NCBI RefSeq assembly: GCF_002208095.1
Contig: NZ_CP017990.1
Coordinates: forward strand, 3,410,001 to 3,474,000
Length of the DNA: 64,000 nt
Source of the DNA: Enterobacter cloacae complex sp. ECNIH7
Lineage (GTDB): Bacteria; Pseudomonadota; Gammaproteobacteria; Enterobacterales; Enterobacteriaceae
Direction of reading: 5' to 3'
Numbering within the stretch: position 1 is the stretch's first letter; each line of letters begins with the position of its first letter. Under the pieces are notes generated by a model. The model was not told the origin of the DNA, did not search any database, and was given only the letters and a program-made list of their open reading frames with translations. The translations under genes and the position numbers were made by a program. Below, piece by piece: positions 8,786 to 10,092 of the stretch.

Positions 8786-8793
8786 CCGTCGGC
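8786..8793. repeat. Target-site duplication, left copy
   Basis: CCGTCGGC directly abuts the left end of the insertion element and is repeated exactly at 10085-10092. Eight bases is the usual IS256-family duplication size. Confidence 0.92.
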
Positions 8794-8817
8794 GGTAGTG
8801 TTCAGAATTCTGTGTCA
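8794..8817 (+). repeat. Left terminal inverted repeat of the IS element
   Basis: Begins GGTAGTGTTCAGAATTCTGT and pairs imperfectly with the right end at 10061-10084, with mismatches clustered at positions 2-4 and 12-13. Confidence 0.88.
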
Positions 8818-8849
8818 TTTCATTAAACTACGACAAAAAGAGATGACAC

Positions 8850-10055
8850 ATGACCAAACCATCCTTCGATATCGAAGCTGCATTGCAAGCCTTGCGTGAC
8901 GGTAAAGACCTGACTGGCAAAGACGGCATTCTTACCCCGCTTATCAAGCAATTGACCGAAGCGGCCATGCAGGCCGAACTTGAGCAGCACCTCGCCCAAG
9001 ATGAAACGCCCAATCGCAAAAACGGCTCAACATCCAAGACCATCAAAAGCATCGCTGGGCGCTTTGAACTCAATACGCCTCGTGATCGGGCCGGTACCTT
9101 TGAGCCGCAAATCATCAAAAAACACCAGACCCAGTTGACTGACGAGCTGGAGCGCAAAATCATCGCCCTGTTTGCGCTTGGAACTAGCTACCAGGATATC
9201 CGGGCGCATATCGAAGAGTTGTACGGCATCCATCTGTCCAACGGTACGCTCAACGCCGTGACTGACAAGCTGCTGCCTGAGTTACAAGCCTGGCGTGACC
9301 GTGAGCTGGATGCGATTTATCCGGTGATGTGGCTCGATGCCATTCACTACAAGATCAAGGAAAATGGCCGCTATATCACCAAAGCTGTTTACACCATTCT
9401 GGGCCTGAATGTCGAAGGTAAAAAAGAGCTGCTCGGTCTTTATCTGTCAGAGCATGAAGGGGCCCATCACTGGTTAAGCGTGCTGACCGATCTGCATAAC
9501 CGGGGTGTCAAAGACATACTGATTGCCTGTGTGGATGGCTTGAAGGGCTTCCCTGAGGCCATCGCAAGTATCTATCCTCGAACGGAAGTTCAGCACTGCG
9601 TCATCCACCAGATCCGCAACTCATTGAAATATGTTGCCAGCAAGAACCAGAAAGCCTTCATGGTGGATCTGAAGTGCGTGTACAAAGCGGCTACCCTGAG
9701 TGCGGCTGAATCGGCGCTGGATGAGTTGGAGGCCAAGTGGGGCGAGAAATACCCAGTCGTCATTAAATCCTGGCGCAATAAATGGGAGACGCTGTCGGCC
9801 TATTTTAAATACCCGGAATACGTCAGAACCGCCATCTACACGACCAATGCGGTCGAGGCGGTACACCGGCAGTTCCGCAAACTGACGAAAACCAAAGGCG
9901 GTTTCGCCAATGAAAACAGTTTGCTCAAGCTGTTATACGCCGGTATGTTGCAGGCATCAGAACGCTGGACGCTCCCCATCCAGAATTGGAATCTGACGCT
10001 GTCGCAGCTATCGATCCATTTCCCCGGCAGATTGGATGATCATATTGACCTATGA
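8850..10055 (+). CDS. IS256-family transposase (DDE, Mutator-like)
   Basis: A 401-residue transposase, normal length for the family, starting 33 bp inside the left inverted repeat. The N-terminal region includes LTKLIKQL-like helices and the motif QAELEQHLAQDE. Acidic catalytic residues are visible: Asp in VMWLDAIHYK, Asp in ILIACVDGLKGFPEA with CVIHQIRNSLKYV downstream, and Glu in TTNAVEAVHRQFRKLTKTKG. It would catalyse excision through a circular intermediate and reinsertion. The frame is intact to the stop at 10053-10055. The gene runs antisense to ompC, so ompC promoter activity would produce antisense RNA across it. Confidence 0.95.
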   Translation: MTKPSFDIEAALQALRDGKDLTGKDGILTPLIKQLTEAAMQAELEQHLAQDETPNRKNGSTSKTIKSIAGRFELNTPRDRAGTFEPQIIKKHQTQLTDELERKIIALFALGTSYQDIRAHIEELYGIHLSNGTLNAVTDKLLPELQAWRDRELDAIYPVMWLDAIHYKIKENGRYITKAVYTILGLNVEGKKELLGLYLSEHEGAHHWLSVLTDLHNRGVKDILIACVDGLKGFPEAIASIYPRTEVQHCVIHQIRNSLKYVASKNQKAFMVDLKCVYKAATLSAAESALDELEAKWGEKYPVVIKSWRNKWETLSAYFKYPEYVRTAIYTTNAVEAVHRQFRKLTKTKGGFANENSLLKLLYAGMLQASERWTLPIQNWNLTLSQLSIHFPGRLDDHIDL

Positions 10056-10060
10056 TCGGC

Positions 10061-10084
10061 TGACACAGAATATTGAACACCCTC
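10061..10084 (-). repeat. Right terminal inverted repeat of the IS element
   Basis: Inward reading from the outer end is GAGGGTGTTCAATATTCTGT followed by GTCA. It is the partner of the left repeat at 8794-8817. Confidence 0.88.
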
Positions 10085-10092
10085 CCGTCGGC
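10085..10092. repeat. Target-site duplication, right copy
   Basis: CCGTCGGC follows the right IS end and is identical to 8786-8793. It corresponds to codons for Ala-Asp-Gly of OmpC. Confidence 0.92.

What the first reader, a model, noticed from the sequence alone, without database searches (positions are those of the whole stretch)
8786..10092. Porin gene ompC is split by a recent, complete IS256-family insertion
The element has matched terminal inverted repeats, an exact 8-bp target duplication (CCGTCGGC) and a full-length transposase frame. The insertion falls at codon 52, so functional OmpC cannot be made. Porin loss by IS insertion is a known route to reduced carbapenem and cephalosporin susceptibility in Enterobacter and Klebsiella, especially with AmpC or ESBL. 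The perfect duplication implies a recent event under selection.
Basis: partly seen in the sequence, partly recalled or inferred. Interest (0 to 1): 0.8.

Follow-up and report, generated by a model that had tools for sequence, protein, structure and literature searches.

The report
Mobile element disrupts outer-membrane porin gene
A jumping DNA element has landed in the gene for a major outer-membrane pore of an Enterobacter-type bacterium that carries many resistance genes; pore loss of this kind is a familiar resistance route, and here two further pore genes are broken as well.

Summary
A complete 1,291-bp IS256-family element (8794-10084) sits in ompC between perfect 8-bp duplications, cutting the gene within codon 52. 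Gene identity is secure: apbE and rcsD flank it, MicF lies upstream, and solved OmpC porins are the closest structures. The predicted product is a 104-aa chimera.

The genome holds two more copies, 100% identical, each with its own 8-bp duplication; one is inside an IS6-family (IS26-type) gene in a chromosomal resistance island. Of 197 genomes searched, own included, no other has a full-length copy above 74% identity. The nearest named element is Shewanella ISSod5 (84% protein identity).

Two further porin genes are broken: the ompF-locus porin is frameshifted, and a porin beside yddG is split by a 7.9-kb Tn3-family transposon identical to one on the contig carrying a KPC-family gene. A chromosomal ACT-type AmpC is present. 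Three other porin genes look intact.

"Recent" is supported; "under drug selection" is plausible but not shown. IS insertion in ompC with ompF also broken is already reported in Enterobacter (PMC5605956). Ordinary in kind; a new instance with a probably unnamed IS.

The parts
8786..8793 (.). left copy of the 8-bp target duplication CCGTCGGC
8794..10084 (+). complete IS256-family insertion sequence, 1,291 bp
   Evidence: ends supported by 4 outside copies
8794..8817 (+). left terminal inverted repeat (19 of 24 bases match the right one)
10061..10084 (-). right terminal inverted repeat
8850..10055 (+). IS256-family (Mutator-type) transposase, 401 aa; candidate catalytic D163, D229, E336
   Evidence: motif positions, triad assignment recalled
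10085..10092 (.). right copy of the 8-bp target duplication
10085..10239 (-). 5' part of ompC (155 bases: signal peptide and first mature residues)
   Evidence: identical over 155 bases to relative G039
7825..8793 (-). 3' part of ompC (rest of the porin, still an open frame)
9925..10239 (-). predicted chimeric frame: OmpC codons up to the break, then into the element, 104 aa, then stop
10564..10657 (+). MicF antisense RNA gene, divergent from ompC, full-length match
   Evidence: RF00033, 110.9 bits, cut-off 79
6655..7710 (-). apbE, downstream neighbour of ompC
10984..13656 (+). rcsD, upstream neighbour of ompC
   Evidence: start codon chosen by eye

Best explanation
An active IS256-family element, probably brought into this Enterobacter lineage with horizontally acquired DNA, copied itself recently into codon 52 of chromosomal ompC and made the usual 8-bp duplication. 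Shown from sequence: a complete element, a broken gene, remnants still undecayed, and three identical copies each with its own duplication. Predicted from sequence: no OmpC porin, because the signal-peptide end runs into a stop inside the element and the rest of the gene has no export signal. Inferred: lower outer-membrane permeability to beta-lactams, which would act together with the beta-lactamase genes present and with the broken ompF-locus porin; and that this advantage under antibiotics is why the insertion persisted.
For: Element, duplication and frames. Three copies at 100% identity with duplications CCGTCGGC, GTTTGCCA and CTCACGCG. Same outer ends and 8-bp duplications in the 4 of 9 outside copies not cut by a contig end. 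ompC pieces against relative G039: 0 differences in 155 bases at the 5' end, and 22 differences in 948 bases at the 3' end touching 17 synonymous and 2 non-synonymous codons. Congener control: 58 of 60 other genomes of the genus have an ompC-like best match in an open frame of 364 codons or more; the exceptions are G053 and G055. ompF locus broken in G000; the best match lies in an open frame of at least 355 codons in all 60 others, but only 9 of those 60 are at 88% identity or more. Third porin split by a Tn3-family transposon. ACT, KPC-family and PSE/CARB beta-lactamase genes.
Against: No expression, protein, susceptibility or read data. Selection is not tested: a chance insertion with no benefit gives the same sequence. 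One of the three copies has no frame of 120 codons or more abutting it, so the element may also move without obvious effect. Three other porin genes look intact and could compensate in part. A KPC-family enzyme could by itself account for carbapenem resistance. ompC breakage is not unique in the genus (G053).
Confidence: 0.87

Rival explanations
1. The insertion is real but neutral or accidental: the element transposes freely and ompC loss was tolerated or drifted to fixation (for example during storage or passage), without antibiotic selection.
For: Three identical copies show recent activity, and one has no open frame of 120 codons or more abutting it.
Against: Three porin genes broken by three different lesions in one genome, against 58 of 60 congeners with a full ompC-like frame, is hard to reconcile with pure chance. 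The comparison genomes are one per species and not matched clinical isolates.
Confidence: 0.2
2. Porin loss was selected by phage or bacteriocin pressure, since major porins serve as receptors, and reduced drug entry is a by-product.
For: General knowledge of porins as receptors (recalled); several general porins are affected.
Against: No evidence here of such exposure, and none was looked for; beta-lactamase genes of several kinds co-occur, which fits drug pressure better.
Confidence: 0.08
3. A reversible switch: precise excision of the element, described for IS256 in staphylococci (recalled), would let a fraction of cells regain ompC.
For: Intact element with perfect duplications and undecayed ompC remnants.
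Against: Only one assembly, no reads: an empty site in part of the population was not observable. The remnants are undecayed for the simpler reason that the event is recent.
Confidence: 0.1
4. Assembly error or mixed culture.
For: No reads could be inspected; three identical copies could in principle confuse an assembler.
Against: Each copy has its own matching 8-bp duplication, which misassembly between copies would scramble; the chromosome is a single 5.14-Mb contig.
Confidence: 0.02

Closest known systems
ISSod5 (IS256 family, Shewanella)
   Same: Same family; 401-residue transposase aligned end to end at 84% identity to two Shewanella plasmid copies annotated ISSod5 family
   Different: Too divergent to be the same element; those plasmid copies were not found by the megablast search. 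ISSba12 is at 81% and ISSod4 at 71%; an ISSod4-type copy is already on an Enterobacter hormaechei plasmid.
IS256-family copy on E. coli AF200 plasmid 2 (NZ_OZ547451.1)
   Same: Full length, 99.1% nucleotide identity, same ends, own 8-bp duplication
   Different: Lies between a CMY-4 beta-lactamase gene and a partial ISApu1-family gene on a plasmid, not in a porin gene
Enterobacter kobei VRES0273 from UK wastewater (PMC5605956, passages seen)
   Same: ompC interrupted by an IS element and ompF also inactivated, in a carbapenemase producer
   Different: ompF broken by a stop codon; OXA-48 instead of a KPC-family gene; the IS is not named in the passages seen, and the word IS256 does not occur in the main text
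Porin-gene interruption by insertion sequences during therapy (Hernandez-Alles 1999, seen only as a reference entry in PMC11805372)
   Same: Same mechanism: insertion sequence inside a porin gene
   Different: From its title and recall only; the paper itself was not read

Membership tests
IS256 family | transposase of the IS256/Mutator type | tested here: met
   NCBIfam IS256 384.5 bits against cut-off 150; Pfam Transposase_mut 325.7 against 21
IS256 family | 8- or 9-bp target duplication (range recalled) | tested here: met
   8 bp at 3 of 3 copies in the genome and at the 4 of 9 outside copies not cut by a contig end
IS256 family | imperfect terminal inverted repeats of about 20-30 bp (range recalled) | tested here: met
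   19 of 24 outer bases; 20-nt core at 90%
IS256 family | catalytic D-D-E triad | tested here: inconclusive
   Motifs give D163, D229, E336 (positions); assignment to the triad is recalled, no alignment to a characterised member was made
IS256 family | transposition activity | not testable with these tools
   Inferred from three identical copies with separate duplications
ISSod5 as the same named element | near-identity (about 95% DNA or 98% protein, threshold recalled) | tested here: not met
   84% protein identity
OmpC (osmoporin) | genomic place: apbE - ompC - micF - rcsD | tested here: met
OmpC (osmoporin) | sequence closest to OmpC/OmpK36 porins | tested here: met
   Solved OmpC and OmpK36 chains rank first (from 578.5 bits), OmpF chains at 357 bits or lower
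OmpC (osmoporin) | uninterrupted full-length frame, needed for a functional porin | tested here: not met
   Frame cut within codon 52; predicted product 104 aa
Porin-loss resistance phenotype | reduced beta-lactam susceptibility caused by the lesion | not testable with these tools
   No susceptibility data

The most novel reading that the evidence does not exclude
The acquired resistance DNA supplied the tools that broke the porins: an aquatic-type IS256 element that entered with the chromosomal resistance island moved from its IS26-type site into ompC, and the Tn3-family transposon moved from the carbapenemase-bearing contig into a third porin gene, so hydrolysis and impermeability were assembled from the same imported material.
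Probability: 0.3. Interest if true: 0.5.

Novelty: new member of a known kind. Interest (0 to 1): 0.36.

Why it matters
Here three porin genes are broken by three different lesions in one genome that also carries several beta-lactamase genes, and two of the lesions are mobile elements with identical copies in resistance-gene regions of the same genome. Scoring ompC alone would miss this. It also records an apparently unnamed IS256-family element, whose named relatives in our searches are mainly from aquatic bacteria, active in a clinically relevant genus and present in near-identical form beside CMY-4 on an E. coli plasmid.

Tried and rejected
Considered and rejected: a chance 8-bp match; a decayed or truncated element (full transposase, both ends); a different porin; the same element as a named one (nearest annotated name ISSod5 at 84%; ISfinder itself was not available, so 'unnamed' is an inference, helped only by the bare family name given to the 99.1% copy).

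Led nowhere or limited: an exact 45-base search of viral contigs with the left end found nothing. Megablast of plasmids with the element found nothing. Several searches warn that records of the window's own genome or near ones may be left out. The protein search scored 8,000 candidates and listed 120; the cluster that holds this transposase stands for 275 member sequences with sources hidden, so the element cannot be called rare. Paper searches: IS256 with ompC, Enterobacter and porin (5 papers, none opened), IS256 with CMY-4 (2 papers), at least three of 'IS256 family', OmpC, insertion, Enterobacterales (181 papers, 20 listed, none of the 20 holding 'IS256 family'), ISSod5 (2 papers); in none of these listings does a title or abstract start mention this insertion. 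That is a statement about the listings only. Enterobacter rests on the ACT-family AmpC passing its cut-off while MIR and CMH do not, with recalled knowledge that ACT enzymes are chromosomal in that genus; plasmid support is weak (11 of the 12 listed best matches to C2 are Enterobacter records, but Klebsiella is commonest among all 4,311). Class B beta-lactamases were not searched for.

Full report
What is there. The window shows CCGTCGGC at 8786-8793 and again at 10085-10092, bounding a 1,291-bp element whose ends are imperfect inverted repeats (19 of 24 outer bases). Its single long frame, 8850-10055, is a 401-residue transposase that passes the curated IS256 and Transposase_mut cut-offs. The element lies in a porin gene on the minus strand. 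The gene is ompC: apbE and rcsD flank it, the MicF RNA gene lies between it and rcsD, and the 315-residue downstream piece is closest to solved OmpC and OmpK36 porins. The break falls after 155 coding bases, within codon 52. The predicted product is a 104-residue chimera; the downstream piece keeps an open frame but lacks the signal peptide.

Is it more than chance? Identical 8-mers at spacing 1,299 occur at 3 of 62,693 positions in the window, this one included, so a match at the exact edges of a complete element is unlikely to be chance. The other 5 are cut by a contig end.

Other copies. The genome (G000, 5.39 Mb, 4 contigs) has three copies, all 100% identical, with duplications CCGTCGGC, GTTTGCCA and CTCACGCG. 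The GTTTGCCA copy lies inside a transposase gene whose remaining 195-codon frame matches, by eye, an IS6-family transposase scanned a few kilobases away (the name IS26 is recalled). In the surrounding 18-kb stretch mph(E), an Msr-family gene, sul1, catB, ANT(2'')-Ia, dfrA19 and an integron integrase pass their curated cut-offs. The CTCACGCG copy has no frame of 120 codons or more abutting either edge; it was not compared with a relative.

Origin. Of 197 genomes searched with the DNA (own included, at most two candidates scored in each), 28 had any match. Besides G000 the best near-full-length match is 74% (G147, same order); some short pieces score higher in identity (28 bases at 96% in G155, about 60 bases at 78-80% in G184, G124 and G055, 113 bases at 75% in G132), so fragments elsewhere are not excluded. 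On plasmids the nearest named element is ISSod5 of Shewanella at 84%, and a more distant ISSod4-type copy (71%) is on an Enterobacter hormaechei plasmid, so this IS group is not wholly foreign to the genus. Of 5,426 E. coli genomes 3 had any match and 1 a full-length copy, at 99.1%, next to CMY-4 on a plasmid. The transposase cluster stands for 275 sequences of hidden source. The simplest reading is a recent import from an aquatic gammaproteobacterial pool; the route through the resistance island is inferred, because the three copies cannot be ordered.

Age. The 5' ompC piece is identical to that of relative G039 over 155 bases, and the 3' piece differs at 22 of 948 bases, touching 17 synonymous and 2 non-synonymous codons. 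That is the pattern of a gene under constraint until recently. With identical element copies and perfect duplications this supports a recent event. It does not show selection.

The rest of the porin set. A porin-family search found nine matches in the genome, one of them (the 5' end of ompC) under the cut-off. The porin between an aromatic aminotransferase gene and asnS, the ompF place (synteny recalled; neighbours confirmed), is in two frames: a 123-codon start and a 238-codon remainder, whose closest solved chains are OmpF and OmpK35. The break lies near codon 117, outside any long single-base run, and intact copies exist: the best match in all 60 congeners lies in an open frame of at least 355 codons, though only 9 of those 60 are at 88% identity or more and many of the rest are probably other porins. 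The porin next to yddG (ompD/nmpC-like by recalled synteny) is split by a 7,936-bp Tn3-family transposon with a 5-bp duplication TAGTT. Of 60 congeners, 34 have a match at 83% identity or more, all in frames of 359 codons or more; the remaining 26 have only more distant porins as best match. The porins beside proB, beside the pyruvate:flavodoxin oxidoreductase gene and beside dcm have full frames (phoE-, ompN- and ompS1-like by recalled synteny).

Beta-lactamases. An ACT-family AmpC is on the chromosome, a PSE/CARB-type gene is near the island, and a KPC-family gene lies on the 21-kb contig C4. A partial beta-lactamase-like piece on C3 was not named. The transposon in the third porin is 100% identical over 7,932 bp to a copy on C4; the island stretch holds a further copy, 100% identical over 4,243 bp, that begins partway into the transposon and runs off the fetched stretch, so its full length is unknown. 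A search with PF00905 returned six matches in frames of 583 to 874 codons, as expected of penicillin-binding proteins rather than class D enzymes. Class B enzymes were not searched for.

Controls against the reading. In the genus scan 58 of 60 other genomes have an ompC-like best match in a frame of 364 codons or more. G053 appears frameshifted close to the same codon, and in G055 the match lacks its 3' end; G055 is an assembly at 78% completeness. So ompC breakage is not unique to this genome. The congeners are one per species and not matched to clinical exposure, so no rate should be drawn from them.

Mechanism and literature. Porin loss lowers drug influx so that periplasmic beta-lactamases can cope with what enters. 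[quoted passage not shown] Passages of PMC9601100 report double ompC/ompF mutants in 12 of 19 carbapenem-resistant E. coli without carbapenemase. PMC5605956 (passages) reports E. kobei with an IS in ompC and a stop in ompF. This finding is therefore a new instance of a known kind. Its less usual features are the IS itself, the third porin, and the identical copies of both mobile elements in resistance-gene regions of the genome.

Verdict. Observation confirmed; interpretation partly supported; the selection claim remains inference.

Noticed in passing
L015:4692-5794 (G000:C1, about 1780691-1781793): The porin at the ompF place, between an aromatic aminotransferase gene and asnS, is frameshifted near codon 117.
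   Followed up: partly
L013:4613-12548 (G000:C1, about 2852612-2860547): A 7,936-bp Tn3-family transposon (tnpA, a resolvase-like gene, SulP-like and universal-stress-protein-like genes; the last label recalled) splits a porin next to yddG; an identical copy is on the KPC-bearing contig C4, and a further copy, cut at one end and running off the fetched stretch, is in the resistance island.
   Followed up: partly
L014 (G000:C1:4304000-4322000) and L107: Chromosomal resistance island with mph(E), Msr-family, sul1, catB, ANT(2'')-Ia, dfrA19, integron integrase and, nearby, a PSE/CARB beta-lactamase gene; an IS256 copy sits inside an IS26-type transposase gene.
   Followed up: partly
   Followed up: partly
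G000:C3:73482-73754: Partial beta-lactamase-family piece on a third contig, not named.
   Followed up: no
L012:11580-12870 (G000:C1:2787579-2788869): Third identical IS256 copy, about 120 bp upstream of a gene that looks like a cytochrome bd oxidase subunit (label recalled; NCBIfam at E 1e-100 gave no name).
   Followed up: no
L105:12001-13291: A 99.1% identical element copy beside CMY-4 on an E. coli plasmid from a UK rectal swab, with its own duplication AAGTTTTT.
   Followed up: partly
L127 (G053:C2:438000-443000): Another genome of the genus has ompC apparently broken by a frameshift around codon 50, close to the codon hit here.
   Followed up: partly
L118 (G000:C2:1-20000): Silver and copper resistance genes (sil, pco), 100% identical to the 12 listed plasmid records, 11 of them Enterobacter.
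   Followed up: no
window:53863-53904: nuoG cis-regulatory RNA (RF01748) on the minus strand, over its cut-off.
   Followed up: no
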